From NCBI GenBank assembly GCA_003221635.1, contig QHSR01000245.1, positions 28,814 through 82,318 of the forward strand: DNA of 53,505 bases. The letters are read 5' to 3'. Source of the DNA: Candidatus Rokuibacteriota bacterium. Its GTDB lineage: Bacteria; Methylomirabilota; Methylomirabilia; Rokubacteriales; CSP1-6. Positions 16,682 to 26,061 of the stretch are shown here, piece by piece. Both the position numbers and the translations under genes were made by a program. The notes under the pieces are model-generated. The model searched no databases, was not told the origin of the DNA, and worked only from the letters and a program-made list of their open reading frames with translations. The stretch's first letter is position 1. Every line of letters starts with the position of its first letter.

Positions 16682-16962
16682 CCGGCGCCATCAGTCCCGC
16701 GTCGATCAGTCGCTGGACCCTGTAACTGCGGTACGCCCAGCTACTGAGCGGTCACGGTAAATACGGCACCTCTCAGACGCATCCGCCCCGTTCTCAACGC
16801 AGAGTGCCCAGCGCGCTGTGCGCTCGCTTGGTTGGAGCCTCTCCTGACTATCTTGAGATCCGGATACTTGGCGCCGGTTCCACTTGGCGTGCGACTTGCC
16901 GGGTTTCTGGCTCGTCGTTCGAGACGGTGCCGCAATCGACACCGAGGACAGCGGTCCAGATC

Positions 16963-19311
16963 ATGCGCAAGGGTGAAACTATGCAAACGCTCGGGGGACG
17001 GCTCGTGCTCGGCGTCTTGGCAGTCGGCTGGATTCTCCTCGGGCCAGTCCTCGCGTGGGACCACGGGCGGCTGACCCTCACGCCCAACACCGCGCATGCG
17101 GATATCACGTACATCTACGACCGGCTCGGCCGATTGATCGCAGTCGTGGACCCGGCCGGCGATGCGGCGGTGTATCACTATGACGCCGTCGGCAATCTCA
17201 CCGGTATCTCCCGCCAGAGCTCCGCCCTGGTCTCCGTCATCGACTTCACCCCGGCCAGCGGGCCGGTCGGCACGACGGTAACCATCTTCGGCACCGGGTT
17301 CAGCCCGACTCCAAGCCAGAACACGGTCACCTTTAGCGGCACCGCGGCCAGCGTGTCCTCGGCCAGTCCGACCCAACTCGTGGCCACGATCCCGTCAGGA
17401 GCAACCACGGGCCCCATCGCGGTGACTGCCCCAGCGGGATCAGCCACCAGCAGCGCTCCCTTCACGGTGACGGGCTCGAGCGGGGCCCCGACCATCACGA
17501 GCTTCACCCCCACGATCGGCACGCCGGGCACCGCCGTCGCGGTCACCGGCACGAACTTCGAGTTGACCTCGACCAACAACCGCCTGCGGTTCAACATCGG
17601 CCCGGCCCCGATCACGTCGTCCACCACGACGAACCTCTCGGTCCCGGTGCCGGGCGGGGCGACGTCGGGTCGGCTCTCCCTGGCCACGCCCGGCGGCGCC
17701 ACCCAGAGCGTCGATGACTTCTTCGTGCCGCCCGCACCCAACACCGTGTCGAGCGTGTCCTTCACCGGCCGGACCTCCATTGGCGGCGCGAGCGTCACCG
17801 CGTCGATCGGTGGTGCCGGCAAGATCGCCCTGATCGTCTTCGATGGTCAGGCGGGCCAGCAGGTGAGCCTCGGCGTCAGCTACGGCGGCGTCCTCGAGAC
17901 AGATACCTACGTCTACCGTCCTGACGGCAGCCAGCTCGGCTGGGTCTACGCGGACGGCGCGGGGCGCGACCTACACTTCGCGTCCCTGCCGGTGACCGGG
18001 ACGTATACCATCATGGTCACTCCCCACGGCAACTACACCGGGACCAAGGCCATCACGCTGTCTCAGGACCTCATCATGGGGGCCCTCCAGGTGGGCGGCG
18101 CCTCCGTTCCCGTGAGCATCACGCGACAAGGCCAGCGGGCCCGGTTGACGTTCTACGGCACGGCGGGGCAGCGGCTGAACCTCGGCTTCCCGGGAGCGAG
18201 CATCTACGACAGCCTCACCGTCTGGAAGCCCGACGGCACGTTGTTCGCGTCGTCTCCTGGCACCACCGATCTCAGCATGGTCATGCCGCCCCTGCCGACG
18301 ACCGGCACCTACGGTATTCTCATCGACCCCACCAACGTCGAGAGCCGCAGCATGACCCTGACCCTGTCGGAGGAGATCAGCGGCGCGATCGTGATCGACG
18401 GTGCCTCGGTCCCGCTGACGCTGGCCCGGCCAGGGCAGATCGCGCGCCTGACCGTCGCGGCGACCGCGGGCCAGCGGCTGAATACTGCGGTCACGAATGC
18501 GACGCTGACGACGTCGCTCGCGATGCTCAAGCCTGATGGCAGCACGTGGTTCACCACCAGCGTGAGCAACGGGACGGTCCTCGACTCGGCGCCCCTGCCG
18601 GCCACCGGCACCTACACCATCGTGATCGATCCCAATACCGCCACCACCGGCGGTCTCACCCTCACGCTCTCGGCGGAGATCGCCGGCAGCATCACGCTGG
18701 GCGGGTCGCCGGTGTCGGTCACCACCACGCGGCCCGGGCAGAAGGCGCGACTGATGTTCGGCGCGACCGCCCCCCAGCGGGCCAGCCTGCACATCACCGG
18801 CGTGACAGCGAGCGGGAACGCCTGGCTTGGCCTCCTCAAACCCGACGGGAGCCAAATCGGCTCGATCACCGTCTCCAACGGCGGCACGGGCTTCCTCGGC
18901 GCAGTCACGCTCGCGACCACGGAGACGGCCTACGCCGTCTACATCGCGCCGGGAGGGACGGGGACCGCCAGCATGACCCTGAGGCTCTACGACGTACCGC
19001 CGGACGTGAGCGGCACGGTCACCATTAACGGAGGCTCCGCTCCCGCGAACATCACCGTCCCCGGCCAGAACGCCGCCTTCACCTTCACGGGCACGAGTGG
19101 CCAGACCGTGACGGCCCGCGGCGACAGCAACACGATCGGCTGCGGTGCGTTCGGCGTGAAGTGGCCGACCGGGAGCTTCACCACGGTCTCGCCCTGCTCG
19201 GCGAGTTTCTCCATCGGTGGGATCAGACTCCAGACCGGCACGCATACCATCTTCTTCGACCCGTCCGGCCCCAACACGGGCGGCGTGAACCTGAGTGTCA
19301 CGCTCCCATGA
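16963..19311 (+). CDS. exported protein: signal peptide, short YD-repeat segment, two IPT/TIG-like domains, about five tandem ~100-aa pre-peptidase-like repeats
   Basis: MQTLGGRLVLGVLAVGWILLGPVLA (signal), ITYIYDRLGRLIAVVDPAGDAAVYHYDAVGNLTGIS, VIDFTPASGPVGTTVTIFGTGF, then repeats such as GQRARLTFYGTAGQRLNLGF / GQIARLTVAATAGQRLNTAV / GQKARLMFGATAPQRASLHI. ATG 16963 or 16981. Confidence 0.82.
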   Translation: MRKGETMQTLGGRLVLGVLAVGWILLGPVLAWDHGRLTLTPNTAHADITYIYDRLGRLIAVVDPAGDAAVYHYDAVGNLTGISRQSSALVSVIDFTPASGPVGTTVTIFGTGFSPTPSQNTVTFSGTAASVSSASPTQLVATIPSGATTGPIAVTAPAGSATSSAPFTVTGSSGAPTITSFTPTIGTPGTAVAVTGTNFELTSTNNRLRFNIGPAPITSSTTTNLSVPVPGGATSGRLSLATPGGATQSVDDFFVPPAPNTVSSVSFTGRTSIGGASVTASIGGAGKIALIVFDGQAGQQVSLGVSYGGVLETDTYVYRPDGSQLGWVYADGAGRDLHFASLPVTGTYTIMVTPHGNYTGTKAITLSQDLIMGALQVGGASVPVSITRQGQRARLTFYGTAGQRLNLGFPGASIYDSLTVWKPDGTLFASSPGTTDLSMVMPPLPTTGTYGILIDPTNVESRSMTLTLSEEISGAIVIDGASVPLTLARPGQIARLTVAATAGQRLNTAVTNATLTTSLAMLKPDGSTWFTTSVSNGTVLDSAPLPATGTYTIVIDPNTATTGGLTLTLSAEIAGSITLGGSPVSVTTTRPGQKARLMFGATAPQRASLHITGVTASGNAWLGLLKPDGSQIGSITVSNGGTGFLGAVTLATTETAYAVYIAPGGTGTASMTLRLYDVPPDVSGTVTINGGSAPANITVPGQNAAFTFTGTSGQTVTARGDSNTIGCGAFGVKWPTGSFTTVSPCSASFSIGGIRLQTGTHTIFFDPSGPNTGGVNLSVTLP

Positions 19312-19328
19312 GGCGAGGAACACACACC

Positions 19329-22300
19329 ATGACGACTCCCCGCCTGCTGCCGAGCTTTCTTTTGTGCGTCACGCTGGGGCTCCTGCTCTCGCCCGCTTCG
19401 TCCGGTCCCCAGGGCGCCGGGCCAGGCATACGCGCGGTGCCCGGCCAGACCTCGACGGTGCTGCCCGATGGAAGGTGGCTGCTTCTCGGCGGTCAGGGAC
19501 CGCAGGGTTCAACAAGGACTGCGGCGATCTACGACCCTCGCACGGGTATCACCACGGCGCTCACCCCGCTCCGGCCCGCGCGCGCGTGGCACTCGGCCAC
19601 GGTCTTGCCGGACGGCACGGTGCTGGTCTTCGGTGGTGCCGGTTCGAACGACCGAGCACTGGCGGAGCCTCAGATCTTCGATCCAGGGACGGGCACATTT
19701 CAGTCGCTATCGATCCCGGGGATAACTCCACGCGCTCACCACAGCGCAACCCTGCTCACCGATGGGCGCGTCCTCATCGGTGGCGGCGAAGCATCGGGAC
19801 AGGCGCTGACTCTGACCGAGGTGTGGACCCCGCAAACTGGAGCGCTGGACACCATCTCCGCTCCGATGAGCGCGAGGCGTTCCGGGCACACTGCGACGCT
19901 CCTCGGAGACGGGACCGTCTTGCTGTGGGGCGGCACTGCCGCTGCGACCGCTAGCGGCGAAGTCTTCGATCCAGTCACGGCGAACTTCAGCCGCATCGCG
20001 GGTACGCCTTGGGGCTCACTCTCCTCCGACCCACCTCAGCTCGCGGCGTCGCTCCCGGCAGCGGGCGCCGTTGATGTTCTCGTGGACCGCCCGATCGCGC
20101 TTCGCTTCTCCAAACCCCTTCGCATGGACAGCGCCACCGACACCACCGTCACGCTCAGCGGTCCTCAGGGACTCGAGACCGTCAAGGTGGTGGCCGCCGA
20201 AGGCGGCATGCTCGTCTTCGTCACGCCGACGGCGCCCCTGACCCCCGGCGCCCGCTACAGCCTCGTGCTCAACGGCCCGGAAGATCCAGACGGGCATCTG
20301 CTGCCCTTCACCCGCGTCGAGTTCAGCACCATCCCGGCGCCAGGGGCGGCTACCTCGCCCGCTATGGCCGCGCCCGCCACGAGATCGGACTACTCCACCG
20401 CCCACGCTCATCATGCCTCCAACTCTCCCAAGCTCGGCACACGCTCGGAGCTGGACGAGTTCGAGTGGAAGGGGCCGCTGCGTGATGGCAAACCGTATTC
20501 GCGCTGGCAGGACCTGCCGCCGCTCAAGGCTGCCCCAGGGGTAACGGCGCTCGCCGGACAGGTGCTGCGCCTGAACGGCCAGCCTCTCGCCGACGTGACG
20601 CTGCAGGTCGGCTCCCGGTCGACGCGGACCGATGGCACCGGCCGCTTCCTGCTCACCGGAATCGCTCCGGGCCGGCAGGAGCTGATCATGGACGGCTCCA
20701 CCGCGAACCAGCCCGGCCGGACCTATGCGACGTTCGATTACGGTGCCGCCATCGAGGACAAGACAACGACCGTGCTGCCGTTCACCATCTGGATGCCCGT
20801 GCTCGACATGCAGCATGCGACGCCGCTCCCGGCCCCAACGCCGCACGAGATCGTCGCCCGGACGCCTCGAATCCCCGGGCTCGAGGTGCACGTGCCCGCC
20901 GGCGTGATTCTCCAGACCGACAACGGCCCGCTGCCCTCAATTTCGCTCACCCAGATCCCGGTCGATCGGCCGCCGTATCCGCTGCCCCCAGGCACGACCT
21001 TCTTCTTCACCCCGCAAGGCCACGGGGCTCAGGTGCTCCGGGCCGACGGCACGCCCAATCCGACCGGGGTGCGCATCATCCTGCCCAACGTAGATCACTT
21101 GCCGGCTGGGGCGCGCGTGGACCTCACCCACTACAACTACTATCGGGGCGGCGACGACGGCCGCCAGATCGTCCCCGACCCCGGTGTGGAGTTCAAGCGC
21201 CTGGGGTGCGCCTTCAGCCTGGGGCCAGACTCGGCCTTTGCGGCCGCGATCCTGGCCGGCCTGCGGGATGGCGAGCCGGTGGACCTGGGCACGGGGCTGT
21301 TCACGCTGGAGAAGGTCGATCTCGTGCTCCCCGACGTGATCCCGATCGTGATTCGACGGCAATACCGGCCAGGAAATTACAACCCCCGAATCTTCGGCGA
21401 CTACATCAGCCATTCCTACCTGATGTACCTGGTCGGCGACCAGACGACCTACAGCTACGCGCAGCTCGTGCTGCCCGACGGCATCAAGGTCCGCTTCAAC
21501 CGCACCTCGCCCGGCACCGACAAGCCCGGGGCGATCATGGAGCACACGGCCACGCCCACCGCCTTCTACAAGGCGCGTCTGACCTGGAACGCCACGCGCA
21601 ACGGCTGGGACATCACTCTCCGGGACGGGACCGTCTATCAATTCACGGCCTCGGGGGACCTCGGCCCATTGCTCATCGGCATCCGCGATCGGGCCGGCAA
21701 CCAGCTCACCATCAGCCGCGCGATGCCCGGCAATAACGTGCCCATCACGCGGATCACTTCCCCCAACGGCCGCTGGGTCGACTTCTCCTACATCGCCGTC
21801 AACACCGTCTACCTGATCTCCCAGCTGCGCGACAGCCTGGGCCGCACCGTGAACTACGCGTACTACCCCGGCGGCTCCTTCTCCCTCAAGACCGTGACCG
21901 ACGCCGCCGGCGGCGTCACCGAGTACACGTGGGCGTCGAACCGCATTGCCACGATCAAGGATCCCCGGAACATCGTTTTCCTCACCAACGAGTACAACGC
22001 CCAGGGCCGCGTGAGCAAGCAGACCCAGGCCGACGGCACCTTCTACCAGTTCGCCTACACGGTCGACGGCCAGAGCAAGGTGACCCAGACCGACGTCACC
22101 GACCCCAGGGGCAACGTGCGCCGCGTCACCTTCAACGCCAACGGCTACGCCCTGACGGACACCCGGGCCTACGGCACCGCCGCCGCCCAGACGACCACGT
22201 ATACCAGAGACGCGACGAGTAACCTGGTCAGCACGATGACCGACGCGCTCGGGCGACAGACCACCTACACCTACAACACTCAGGGCCAGGTGCTCACCGT

Positions 22301-24434
22301 CACCCGGCTGGCCGGTACCGGCGACGCCGTCACCACCACCGTCACCTACGAGCCCACCTTCAATCAGGTGGCGTCGATCTCCGATCCCCTGAGCCACACC
22401 ACGAGCTTCGGCTATGACGCGCTCGGCAACCTCACCGCCGTCACCGATCCGCTGAGCCACCAGACCACGCTGACCTACAACACCCAGGGCCAGCCGCTGA
22501 CGATGACGGACGCGCTGAGCAACACCACCACGCTCAGCTATGCCGATGGCGACCTGGCCATCATCACCGATCCCATCGGCAAGACGACCACCCGATTCAC
22601 CGACGGGGGCGGCCGGCTCATCGCCACGACCAACCCCCTGGGCCGGCAGACGCGCTACGACTACGACGGCCTGAATCAGCTGACGAAGATCACCGACGCC
22701 CTCGGGGGCCAGACTCAGCTCGCGTACGATGGCAACGGTAATTTCCTGAGCCTGACCGACGCGCGCACCAACACGACGAGCTACGCCTACAACTCAATGG
22801 ATCGCGCCACCACCCGCCCCGCCCCGCTCACCCGCCAGGACAGCTACGGCTACGACAACAACGGCAACGCCGTAAGCTTCACCGGTCGGAAGAGCCAGAT
22901 CACGAGCACGACCCAGGACAGCTCCACGACCAGCTACACCTGGGATGCCGGGGACCGCGTCAGCCAGATCGTGGACTCGCTCTCGGGCACCATCACCCGC
23001 ACCTACGATGGGCTCGATCGGCTCACCCAGGAGGCCACGCCGCAGGGCACGATCAGCTACACGTACGACAACGCGAGCCGCCGTTCGTCGATGACAGTGC
23101 TCGGCCAGCCGACCGTCAACTACTCCTATGACAACGCCGACCGCCTCACCCAGATCACCCAGGGTACGAGCACTGTCGCCTTCGCCTACGACAACGCCAA
23201 CCGGCGCACCAGCCTCACCCTGCCCAATAGCATCGTCACCGAGTACGCCTACGATGCCGCCAGCCGCCTCACCGGGCTGACCTACAAGCTCGGACCCGCG
23301 CCCCTGGGAACGTTGACGTACGGCTACGACGCTAACGGCAACCGCACGGTCCTCGGCGGCAGCTGGGCCCGGACGGGTCTACCGGCAGCCCTCGCCAGCG
23401 CTACCTATAACGCGGCCAACCACCAGCTGACCTTCGGCAGCACGACGCTGACCTACGACCTGAACGGTAACCTCGCCAGCGATGGGACCAACACGTACAC
23501 GTGGGATGCGCGCAACCGCCTCGAGGCCATCAGCGGCGGAAGTACCGCGAGTTTCCAGTACGACGCGCAGGGGCGCCGCACGAGCAAGACCGTCAACTCG
23601 GCCCAGACCGGCTTTCTCTACGACGGCGTGACGCCCGTGCAGGAGTTGACCGGGTCGACGGTCGTCGCCAACCTCCTCACCGGCCTCGGGATCGACGAGT
23701 ACCTGACGCGGACGGACCCGAGCGGTGCGAGTCATTTCCTTGCCGATGCGTTGGGCAGCACTGTGGCTCTGTCCGACGCCGTCGGCACCCTACCGACGAG
23801 CTATACCCACGCACCATTCGGCGTGACCACCATCAGTGGGACCGCGACGGGCAACGCCTTCGACTACACGGGCCGGGAGGACGACGCGACCGGGCTGAAG
23901 TACTATCGGGCGCGCTACTACTATCCTAGACTTCAGCGATTCATCAGCCAGGATCCGATCGGCTTTCGGGGTGGTGACGCTAATCTGTACGCATACGTCT
24001 TCAACAATCCCTCCAACCTGACCGACCCGCTCGGTCTGCATCTTACTATCGCCCTCTATCGGTGCTGCGGACCCTACAACCACATTGGTATTGGAGTGAA
24101 CTCGAACGACACAGTTGGATTTCGTCCAACGATCAGTCTTCTACCCCTGTGGTTTGGCGAAGTGTCAAACGATCGAGCGGTACATCCCGAGGGACCAATC
24201 GCCTCCGTAACGCTCAAGACTACACAAGACCAAGATGCAAGGATTCAGAGATTCATAGAACACTACCGTGATCAGCCGGGCCTATATACCATTCTAGCAG
24301 GACGTCACTGTGGAACATTTGTCAGGGACGCGCTGGCCGCCGGGGGCATAGAGGTCGGAAATCCCAATCCGAACTGGATCATGGCGGAACTACTCGAACA
24401 GGCTCAGCGGCAGGGCGTCTTGTTGGCACCCTAA
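19329..24434 (+). CDS. Sec-exported Rhs/YD-repeat protein with kelch-like N-terminus, carboxypeptidase-regulatory-like domain, RHS core and variable C-terminal domain
   Basis: MTTPRLLPSFLLCVTLGLLLSPASS (signal), repeated LPDGxxLLxGG units, many YDxxGxL/T repeats, core motif YRARYYYPRLQRFISQDPIGFRGGDANLYAYVFNNPSNLTDPLGL. Confidence 0.93.
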   Translation: MTTPRLLPSFLLCVTLGLLLSPASSGPQGAGPGIRAVPGQTSTVLPDGRWLLLGGQGPQGSTRTAAIYDPRTGITTALTPLRPARAWHSATVLPDGTVLVFGGAGSNDRALAEPQIFDPGTGTFQSLSIPGITPRAHHSATLLTDGRVLIGGGEASGQALTLTEVWTPQTGALDTISAPMSARRSGHTATLLGDGTVLLWGGTAAATASGEVFDPVTANFSRIAGTPWGSLSSDPPQLAASLPAAGAVDVLVDRPIALRFSKPLRMDSATDTTVTLSGPQGLETVKVVAAEGGMLVFVTPTAPLTPGARYSLVLNGPEDPDGHLLPFTRVEFSTIPAPGAATSPAMAAPATRSDYSTAHAHHASNSPKLGTRSELDEFEWKGPLRDGKPYSRWQDLPPLKAAPGVTALAGQVLRLNGQPLADVTLQVGSRSTRTDGTGRFLLTGIAPGRQELIMDGSTANQPGRTYATFDYGAAIEDKTTTVLPFTIWMPVLDMQHATPLPAPTPHEIVARTPRIPGLEVHVPAGVILQTDNGPLPSISLTQIPVDRPPYPLPPGTTFFFTPQGHGAQVLRADGTPNPTGVRIILPNVDHLPAGARVDLTHYNYYRGGDDGRQIVPDPGVEFKRLGCAFSLGPDSAFAAAILAGLRDGEPVDLGTGLFTLEKVDLVLPDVIPIVIRRQYRPGNYNPRIFGDYISHSYLMYLVGDQTTYSYAQLVLPDGIKVRFNRTSPGTDKPGAIMEHTATPTAFYKARLTWNATRNGWDITLRDGTVYQFTASGDLGPLLIGIRDRAGNQLTISRAMPGNNVPITRITSPNGRWVDFSYIAVNTVYLISQLRDSLGRTVNYAYYPGGSFSLKTVTDAAGGVTEYTWASNRIATIKDPRNIVFLTNEYNAQGRVSKQTQADGTFYQFAYTVDGQSKVTQTDVTDPRGNVRRVTFNANGYALTDTRAYGTAAAQTTTYTRDATSNLVSTMTDALGRQTTYTYNTQGQVLTVTRLAGTGDAVTTTVTYEPTFNQVASISDPLSHTTSFGYDALGNLTAVTDPLSHQTTLTYNTQGQPLTMTDALSNTTTLSYADGDLAIITDPIGKTTTRFTDGGGRLIATTNPLGRQTRYDYDGLNQLTKITDALGGQTQLAYDGNGNFLSLTDARTNTTSYAYNSMDRATTRPAPLTRQDSYGYDNNGNAVSFTGRKSQITSTTQDSSTTSYTWDAGDRVSQIVDSLSGTITRTYDGLDRLTQEATPQGTISYTYDNASRRSSMTVLGQPTVNYSYDNADRLTQITQGTSTVAFAYDNANRRTSLTLPNSIVTEYAYDAASRLTGLTYKLGPAPLGTLTYGYDANGNRTVLGGSWARTGLPAALASATYNAANHQLTFGSTTLTYDLNGNLASDGTNTYTWDARNRLEAISGGSTASFQYDAQGRRTSKTVNSAQTGFLYDGVTPVQELTGSTVVANLLTGLGIDEYLTRTDPSGASHFLADALGSTVALSDAVGTLPTSYTHAPFGVTTISGTATGNAFDYTGREDDATGLKYYRARYYYPRLQRFISQDPIGFRGGDANLYAYVFNNPSNLTDPLGLHLTIALYRCCGPYNHIGIGVNSNDTVGFRPTISLLPLWFGEVSNDRAVHPEGPIASVTLKTTQDQDARIQRFIEHYRDQPGLYTILAGRHCGTFVRDALAAGGIEVGNPNPNWIMAELLEQAQRQGVLLAP
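24039..24431 (+). other. Rhs variable C-terminal domain, candidate toxin with H-then-C motif order
   Basis: Follows DPLGL: HLTIALYRCCGPYNHIGIGVNSN...GLYTILAGRHCGTFVRDALAAGGIEVGNPNPNWIMAELLEQ. GC drops relative to the Rhs body (my hand counts ~45-53% in sampled 60-bp lines versus ~67% at 22261-22320). Confidence 0.65.
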
Positions 24435-24453
24435 TAAATGAGACGCTGGCGAA

Positions 24454-24849
24454 GTGTTTATTTCGCGCAACACTGTAAGCGAGACGAATCCCATAAAGCC
24501 TGTAGGCTCGTCACGCGAGGTGCCCGTGCTGAAGAAAGTCGTAACCGCATCGCTTGTGCTCGGCGCATTGGGCCCCCTGATGCTCGGTCCAGTAGTGATC
24601 TGGCTCGACTCGCACTCACACGATTTTCGCACCGACATGCGCTGGGAGGCGATATTCAGGTGGTGCTGGCCTACCTCGCCGATGCTCATGACCGGCGGCG
24701 GTGCCAAGCCCTTCACGCTCGCCTATATGGTGCTGCTTCTTATAAGCGCACTCTCGAACATCGTCCTTTTCGGCTTGATTAGCGCGCTGTTGGGAGCTGG
24801 CTTCATCCTTGTGCGATCAGTGTCTCGCATGATGCGGGCGCCTAAGTAG
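24454..24849 (+). CDS. small membrane protein, candidate immunity protein
   Basis: 20 bp after the Rhs stop. Two predicted hydrophobic helices (VVTASLVLGALGPLMLGPVVIW; AYMVLLLISALSNIVLFGLISALLGAGFILV). Start uncertain (24454, 24520 or 24526). Confidence 0.6.
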   Translation: MFISRNTVSETNPIKPVGSSREVPVLKKVVTASLVLGALGPLMLGPVVIWLDSHSHDFRTDMRWEAIFRWCWPTSPMLMTGGGAKPFTLAYMVLLLISALSNIVLFGLISALLGAGFILVRSVSRMMRAPK

Positions 24850-25907
24850 GCAGCGGCGATTCTTGCGCCGGCCAGGGCAACCCGTGCCAGCTGGCGATGG
24901 GCGCCAACTACTCCATCATGGCCAACTTCACTCGCGTGTACGGCTTGACGGTCACGCGGGCCGGAGTGGGCAGCGGCTCGGTCTCGTCGAGCCCAGCCGG
25001 AATCAGCTGCGGAGCTGACTGTTCGGAGAGCTACAACACCGGCACGACCGTCACCCTCACGGCGACGGCCACCGTCGACTCGATCTTCATGGGCTGGAGC
25101 GGGGCGTGCGCCGGCGCCGCCTGTACGGTCACGATGACCGCGGACAAGACGGCCGTCGCCACCTTCGCGCCCAATCAGCCAGACCTCGTCGAGACGTCGG
25201 TGAGCGATCCGCCGGCGGCTGCGGCTCCGGGCAGCGCCTTCAGCGTGACCGACAGCGTGCTGAACCAGGGCGGTGTGTCCGTGGCTTCGACGACGACGCG
25301 CTACTACCTGTCGCTCGACGCCGCGAAGGATGGCGCCGATCGATTGCTCTCGGGAACCCGCGGCGTCCCGACGCTCGCCGCCAGTGCGACCTCGAGCGGA
25401 TCCCGGACGGTCACGATCCCATCGGCGACGCCGCTCGGCACGTACTTCCTCCTGGCTTGCGCCGACGATCTCTCCCAACGCGCCGAAAGAAACGAGACGA
25501 ACAATTGCCGCGCTTCTGCTACGACGATCCAGGTGACTCGCCCGGATCTCCTCGAGACGTCCGTCTCGGCGCCGCCCGCCACCGTGGTCCGCGGAACGAG
25601 CTTCTCGGTGACGGACACCGTGCTGAACCAGGGAGGGCTGGCGTCAGGCGCCTCGACGACCCGCCACTATCTCTCGGCGAACTCGGTGAAGGACGGTAAC
25701 GATCGTCTCGTCGGGTCGCGCTCGATCCCGGCGCTCGCCGTGGCGGCGACATCGACCGGCACGGTCAGCGTCACTGTCCCGTCGAACATGGCGCTCGGCC
25801 CGTACTACCTGATCGCCTGCGCCGACAACACCACGACGGTGACCGAGAGCAACGAGACCAATAACTGTCTCGCGTCGGACACCACGGTCCGGGTGACCGC
25901 GCCCTAG
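24846..25907 (+). pseudogene. 5'-truncated gene for an extracellular protein with InlB/Flg_new-like repeat and two CARDB-like domains
   Basis: Frame is open from TAA 24843-24845: VGSGDSCAGQGNPCQLAMGANYSIMANF..., which begins mid-domain (compare GWSGACAGAACTVTMTADKTAVATF further on). Two PDLxETSVSxPPA...NETNNC repeats. The track ORF starts at internal ATG 24897 with no signal peptide. Confidence 0.65.
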
Positions 25908-26061
25908 CCGTGAAGCGCTTCGCTCCTCGCCAGGCATAGAAGCAGGACGGTGCTCAACGCGGAAGGATGATCGTCATGCGGGGCGCGCGCATCGGCGAGA
26001 TCCTCGCCTACATGATCCATCCCGAGGCGGCGGGCCGGGGGCCTCGGGCCCGGTCGAGGCC

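What the first reader, a model, noticed from the sequence alone, without database searches (positions are those of the whole stretch)
24039..24849. Rhs C-terminal cassette: putative H/C-dyad toxin domain followed by a small membrane protein as candidate immunity partner
Seen in sequence: right after the Rhs core motif (...NNPSNLTDPLGL) the protein switches to ~132 aa with no YD repeats, carrying YNHIGIGVN and LAGRHCGTFVRDAL. The DNA becomes clearly less GC-rich from this boundary through the next gene. Twenty bp after the stop lies a two-helix membrane protein. Established knowledge: in polymorphic Rhs toxins the variable domain after DPxGL is the toxin and the next small gene is usually its immunity. 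Inference: His before Cys recalls circularly permuted papain-like folds (LRAT/YaeF/NlpC-type), so the domain may be a cysteine hydrolase or acyltransferase acting at the envelope, which would fit a membrane immunity protein. I do not recognise either protein as a named family.
Basis: partly seen in the sequence, partly recalled or inferred. Interest (0 to 1): 0.72.

Follow-up and report, generated by a model that had tools for sequence, protein, structure and literature searches.

The report
Rhs-tip toxin with membrane immunity gene
The tip of a large secreted bacterial Rhs protein is an unnamed, probably membrane-lipid-attacking toxin domain built like known papain-fold lipid enzymes, and the small membrane gene behind it is conserved beside it in related bacteria, as expected of the gene that protects the producer.

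Summary
The Rhs gene (ATG 19329, stop 24434) ends its core at DPLGL (24038). A 131-residue tail follows, then a small membrane protein. Tail plus membrane gene form the lowest-GC 811 bp of the window.

The tail is a real family. It sits at the end of Rhs cores in 6 of 95 genomes of the phylum, with H15 and C91 invariant. In 5 of 6 the next gene is a relative of the window's membrane protein; in the sixth it is a lipoprotein. Profiles built without the window find both window genes.

No Pfam or NCBIfam model reaches its cut-off. Every weak sequence and structure match points the same way: permuted NlpC/P60 (papain-like) enzymes, namely TseH, PLAAT/LRAT, Lnb_N and PPPDE.

The closest studied precedent is Tox-Act1 with its two-helix Imm-Act1, a periplasm-acting phospholipase (PMC12994826). 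I read this as a polymorphic toxin that attacks acyl bonds at the target's inner membrane, neutralised by a membrane immunity protein. The pair and the fold are well supported. The lipid substrate is inference, and toxicity is untested.

It is a new family within a known kind.

The parts
19329..24434 (+). Rhs protein gene: apparent signal peptide, kelch repeats, Big_5, DUF6531, RHS/YD repeats, Rhs core, toxin tail
   Evidence: Pfam and NCBIfam domains over their cut-offs; ATG with upstream GAGG; signal peptide MTTPRLLPSFLLCVTLGLLLSPASS read by eye; no PAAR match
23811..24038 (+). Rhs-associated core (TIGR03696) ending ...NNPSNLTDPLGL
   Evidence: residues 1551-1626 of P0001; the only match to this model in the genome
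24039..24434 (+). C-terminal toxin domain, 131 aa, permuted NlpC/P60-like family
   Evidence: family of 6 genomes, models, Foldseek, Pfam sub-threshold hits, TseH as the only PDB profile hit, Lnb_N profile comparison
24081..24083 (+). His15 of the domain, predicted catalytic His (motif NHIGIGV)
   Evidence: invariant; position
24171..24173 (+). Asp45, invariant acidic residue, possible third active-site or structural residue
   Evidence: invariant; role inferred only
24309..24311 (+). Cys91 of the domain, predicted nucleophile (motif [RN]-[NH]-C-x-x-F-V)
   Evidence: invariant; it lies in the stretch that the sub-threshold PPPDE, LRAT and Lnb_N hits and the TseH match cover
24526..24849 (+). 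candidate immunity gene, about 107 aa, two membrane helices with a WPTSPMLM loop; the ORF can be extended to GTG 24454
   Evidence: homologues directly downstream of the toxin domain in 4 other genomes; leave-one-out profile hit E=7.5e-7; hydropathy
23922..24849 (+). low-GC exchanged segment: end of core, toxin tail and immunity gene
   Evidence: GC3 change point and GC ranking
24864..25908 (+). right-hand border: 5'-truncated remnant of a long B-repeat/CARDB protein gene
   Evidence: 86% DNA identity to the 3' end of a 1926-aa gene in a same-genus genome; no other synteny around it

Best explanation
The segment is the variable effector-immunity tip of a Sec-type Rhs polymorphic toxin. The 131-residue tail is a cysteine enzyme with the circularly permuted NlpC/P60 (papain-like) fold: His15 on an early strand, Cys91 at the start of a later helix. 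It most likely attacks acyl bonds of phospholipids, or less likely of lipoproteins, at the inner membrane of a competing bacterium, as Tox-Act1 and TseH do. The small gene at 24526-24849 encodes an inner-membrane protein that protects the producer and its kin. The tip was acquired as a cassette by recombination within the conserved end of the Rhs core. Shown here: the conserved toxin-partner pair, invariant H and C, fold-level resemblance, tail variability on related cores, foreign composition. Inferred: catalysis, lipid substrate, site of action, immunity function, route of delivery.
For: Domain family at Rhs ends in 6 of 95 genomes, H15 and C91 invariant. Conserved membrane neighbour in 5 of 6, with leave-one-out E=7.5e-7. 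Foldseek: TseH 6v98 ranks first for a relative's model (prob 0.98, TM 0.52, E 0.017), and human PLAAT/HRASLS enzymes take ranks 1-7 for the window's model. The only PDB profile hit is again TseH, with both the His and the Cys blocks aligned. Sub-threshold Pfam hits to PPPDE C97, LRAT and Lnb_N all cover the Cys block. Lnb_N profile-profile score 24.6 against 200 column shuffles (mean 11.3, SD 2.1, maximum 17.7). Cores 60-65% identical to this one carry unrelated tails. Lowest-GC stretch of the window. Precedent: Tox-Act1 (permuted NlpC/P60; needs its conserved His and Cys; toxic only in the periplasm; phospholipase) with Imm-Act1, which has two transmembrane helices (PMC12994826).
Against: No single sequence or structure match is significant alone: Foldseek E 0.017 to 0.17, TM 0.44-0.53, all Pfam hits below cut-off, hhalign probability 10.7%. 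The best Pfam E-value (0.0076) belongs to PPPDE, a peptidase family. One family member (G079) has a lipoprotein rather than the membrane protein downstream. Nothing shows that the domain is toxic.
Confidence: 0.66

Rival explanations
1. Same fold and same toxin-immunity pair, but the enzyme is a peptidase or amidase (peptidoglycan cross-link, or a PPPDE-like isopeptidase), not a lipid enzyme.
For: PPPDE C97 is the best Pfam E-value (0.0076). TseH was first proposed to be an endopeptidase (PMC12994826).
Against: The permuted group is the lipid-binding one; TseH itself showed phospholipase activity in a liposome assay. The window's model matches PLAAT phospholipase/acyltransferases. A membrane-embedded immunity protein fits a membrane substrate better.
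Confidence: 0.15
2. The tail is an autoprocessing or releasing protease of the Rhs protein, or a non-toxic terminus, and the membrane gene is an accessory.
For: Papain-like domains act as releasing peptidases in some polymorphic toxins (PMC3482391).
Against: The domain is at the extreme C-terminus with no toxin after it in all six intact copies. Other tails on related cores are of unrelated kinds, including alpha/beta hydrolase-like ones. The downstream partner is conserved.
Confidence: 0.08
3. The toxin acts on eukaryotes (grazers, hosts), and the downstream gene is incidental.
For: The structural relatives of the window model are eukaryotic PLAAT enzymes; some polymorphic-toxin tips are thought to act on eukaryotes (PMC3482391).
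Against: A conserved immunity-like neighbour in 5 of 6, plus an alternative lipoprotein in the sixth, argues for bacterial targets.
Confidence: 0.06

Closest known systems
Tox-Act1 / Imm-Act1 (Salmonella T6SS effector STox_15; PMC12994826)
   Same: Predicted permuted NlpC/P60 core with essential His before Cys; antibacterial pair with a downstream two-helix membrane immunity protein; related to Lnb/DUF4105 and TseH.
   Different: There delivered by T6SS; here the tip of a Sec-type Rhs protein without PAAR. No direct sequence comparison was made: I did not fetch that effector.
TseH (PDB 6v98; DUF6695 clade)
   Same: Only PDB profile hit and top structural hit of a family member's model; aligned His and Cys motifs.
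   Different: About 12% identity; sub-significant E-values; stand-alone T6SS effector rather than an Rhs tip.
PLAAT/HRASLS and LRAT (PF04970)
   Same: Top seven Foldseek hits of the window model; resemblance of the motif around the Cys; Pfam LRAT E=0.03 in a relative.
   Different: Below Pfam cut-off. The second active-site His of LRAT/PLAAT (12 residues after the first, from memory) is not there: that position is an invariant Gly.
Lnb_N / DUF4105 (PF13387)
   Same: Profile-profile alignment over the helix and Y...NC block, 0 of 200 shuffles as good.
   Different: Below Pfam cut-off; a larger domain of a lipoprotein acyltransferase family, absent from the window's own genome.
Tox-HDC (PF15656)
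   Same: Also a polymorphic toxin named for conserved H, D/N and C.
   Different: No match in any genome that carries this family; predicted Rossmannoid/caspase-like fold and usually without immunity genes.

Membership tests
Rhs polymorphic toxin (effector-immunity) system | Rhs/YD repeats and Rhs-associated core ending DPxGL, followed by a variable tail | tested here: met
Rhs polymorphic toxin (effector-immunity) system | related cores carry unrelated tails | tested here: met
   cores 60-65% identical with unrelated tails
Rhs polymorphic toxin (effector-immunity) system | conserved small gene directly downstream | tested here: met
   5 of 6 members; leave-one-out E=7.5e-7
Rhs polymorphic toxin (effector-immunity) system | tail is toxic and the neighbour neutralises it | not testable with these tools
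   needs expression in cells
Permuted NlpC/P60 (papain-like) superfamily | catalytic His before catalytic Cys, both conserved | tested here: met
   H15 and C91 invariant in all members; catalysis itself not tested
Permuted NlpC/P60 (papain-like) superfamily | fold matches permuted members | tested here: inconclusive
   all credible top hits are of this group (TseH, PLAAT), but E 0.017-0.17 and TM 0.44-0.53
Permuted NlpC/P60 (papain-like) superfamily | significant sequence match to a member family | tested here: inconclusive
   Pfam sub-threshold; TseH E=0.85; Lnb_N beats all 200 shuffles but probability 10.7%
LRAT/PLAAT family proper (PF04970) | passes the Pfam cut-off | tested here: not met
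   15.0 bits at best against a cut-off of 24.3
LRAT/PLAAT family proper (PF04970) | second active-site His 12 residues after the first (spacing from memory) | tested here: not met
   the position is invariant G27
Tox-Act1 clade | groups with Tox-Act1 in a tree | not tested
   reference sequences were deliberately not fetched
Tox-Act1 clade | two-helix membrane immunity partner downstream | tested here: met
   hydropathy of the window protein; homology to Imm-Act1 not tested
Tox-HDC (PF15656) | profile match | tested here: not met
   no match in G000, G034, G035, G075, G079 or G083

The most novel reading that the evidence does not exclude
A previously undescribed family of Rhs-borne permuted papain-like lipid toxins in a little-studied phylum, with two interchangeable immunity solutions (a two-helix membrane protein and, in G079, an unrelated lipoprotein). 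It could work as an acyltransferase or lipoprotein deacylase rather than as a plain phospholipase.
Probability: 0.3. Interest if true: 0.6.

Novelty: new member of a known kind. Interest (0 to 1): 0.47.

Why it matters
According to PMC12994826 (2026), Tox-Act1 is the first toxin of this fold characterised directly as a lipid enzyme, and it belongs to a T6SS. Finding the same logic (His-Cys enzyme plus a membrane immunity protein) on a Sec-type Rhs protein in a phylum known here only from draft genomes would suggest that permuted NlpC/P60 lipid toxins move between delivery systems. It also gives a small, testable pair that no current family model detects.

Tried and rejected
Tox-HDC, suggested by the invariant H, D and C: rejected, no match in any carrier genome. 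LRAT proper: below cut-off and lacks the second His. Loci L002 (an RNA methyltransferase-like protein) and L042 (viral contig): chance peptide matches, not relatives. Weak A2 hits in other genomes are ABC permeases or unlinked membrane proteins. tblastn of plasmids (also with a family consensus) and phages, and two of the three viral-contig scans: nothing. Simple insertion into a syntenic site of same-genus G049: not supported, only the CARDB remnant aligns over any length near the pair. Literature searches for Rhs with LRAT, and for Rokubacteria (my guess from memory for the phylum) with Rhs, found no paper. The single genome-contig scan found no true relative, so prevalence outside the phylum is unknown.

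Full report
OBSERVATION. The Rhs ORF carries kelch repeats, a Big_5 domain, DUF6531, many RHS repeats and the Rhs-associated core, all over their curated cut-offs. It begins with an apparent signal peptide at ATG 19329 (signal read by eye) and has no PAAR match. The core ends ...NNPSNLTDPLGL at 24038. The tail is 131 residues, the next ORF ends at 24849. GC falls from 0.668 in the core to 0.539 in the tail and 0.590 in the next gene; 24039-24849 is lower than every one of 1054 sliding windows of that length. The third-position GC change point is at about 23922, so the exchange probably took place within the conserved core end. Immediately to the right, from 24864, lies a 5'-truncated remnant of a long B-repeat/CARDB gene whose full version (1926 aa) is in a same-genus genome; nothing else around it is syntenic with that genome.

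FAMILY. Neither window protein reaches the cut-off of any Pfam or NCBIfam model. A search of the 95 held genomes of the phylum found the tail in five further genomes, each time at the C-terminus of an Rhs frame right after DPxGL. In the alignment H15, D45 and C91 are invariant, with T61, Q65, Y83, F94 and V95. The distribution is sporadic: 6 of 95 genomes, while cores related to this one at E<=1e-10 occur in 31 of 95.

PARTNER. In G034, G035, G083 and G075 the gene directly downstream is a 93-110 aa membrane protein with a W-P-[ST]-[SQ]-I-[ML] motif between two hydrophobic stretches, overlapping or close to the toxin gene. A profile built only from these finds the window's 24442-24846 frame as the sole hit among 536 window ORFs, E=7.5e-7; the corresponding toxin profile finds the Rhs frame at E=2.9e-25. 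In G079 the neighbour is instead a lipoprotein, and a second, degraded copy of toxin and lipoprotein lies further downstream. Two kinds of partner for one toxin family, and displaced remnants, are usual for polymorphic toxin loci (established knowledge).

FOLD. AlphaFold2 from five or six sequences gave mean pLDDT 86.5 for the window domain and 84.2 for the L006 relative. Foldseek against the PDB: the window model's first seven hits are human PLAAT/HRASLS phospholipase-acyltransferases, with an HRASLS3/LRAT chimera ninth (best prob 0.77, E 0.17, TM 0.44/0.53). The relative's first hit is TseH, prob 0.98, E 0.017, TM 0.52, followed by H-REV107. By sequence, the family profile has one PDB hit, again TseH (E 0.85), aligning both the GH and the NC motifs, the former very weakly. 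Single members have sub-threshold Pfam hits to PPPDE C97, LRAT and Lnb_N over the Cys block. A profile of Lnb_N proteins from the same phylum aligns with the family profile at score 24.6; 200 column shuffles give mean 11.3, SD 2.1, maximum 17.7, and reversed and unrelated controls score about 11. None is decisive alone; together they all name the permuted papain-like group.

MECHANISM. Precedent from the literature: Tox-Act1 has a permuted NlpC/P60 core, needs its conserved His and Cys, is toxic only in the periplasm, cleaves PG and PE, and is neutralised by Imm-Act1 with two transmembrane helices; TseH also showed phospholipase activity (PMC12994826). By this analogy the window domain is most likely a His-Cys acyl hydrolase or transferase acting on the inner membrane. 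This is inference from fold, residues and partner; no activity was measured. Positive residues at both ends of the partner suggest both ends in the cytoplasm and the loop outside (inference). Delivery is unresolved: the protein looks Sec-exported, while the genome also encodes a VipB-type T6SS sheath protein elsewhere.

POLYMORPHISM. The genome has one Rhs-associated core. Cores 60-65% identical to it in G087, G051, G090 and G073 end in unrelated tails. More distant cores (L053, L057, L059) carry tails with a G-H-S-x-G nucleophile motif that suggests alpha/beta hydrolases.

VERDICT. Observation confirmed with small corrections; first interpretation supported. A new family within a known kind: an Rhs effector-immunity pair of probable permuted NlpC/P60 type. 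Toxicity and substrate remain to be shown.

Noticed in passing
24864-25908: 5'-truncated remnant of a B-repeat/CARDB gene starting just after the immunity stop codon; 86% identical to the 3' end of a 1926-aa gene in same-genus genome G049, with no synteny around it.
   Followed up: yes
16804-19311: Gene directly upstream of the Rhs gene encodes a protein with a short YD-repeat followed by IPT/TIG-like repeats (read by eye); a protein with the same opening lies just downstream of the toxin-immunity pair in L040 and L041, which may make it a recurrent neighbour of these Rhs loci.
   Followed up: partly
L053, L057, L059: Other Rhs tails in the phylum carry GHSxG-type alpha/beta hydrolase motifs, hinting at further lipid- or ester-targeting tips.
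   Followed up: no
L044 (from 2188): The genome with the closest core (65%) has a tail that begins like this domain (DLTI..Y.CC.....HI) but is broken after about 22 residues and is followed by an unrelated gene.
   Followed up: partly
L037 / L008 (G079:C41): Degraded second copy of toxin tail and lipoprotein downstream of the intact pair, as a displaced cassette.
   Followed up: partly
L031:869-1419: A stand-alone frame with the same Cys block (LLPHNCASFVEDVVRAGG), not on an Rhs core, followed by a small membrane-protein frame.
   Followed up: no
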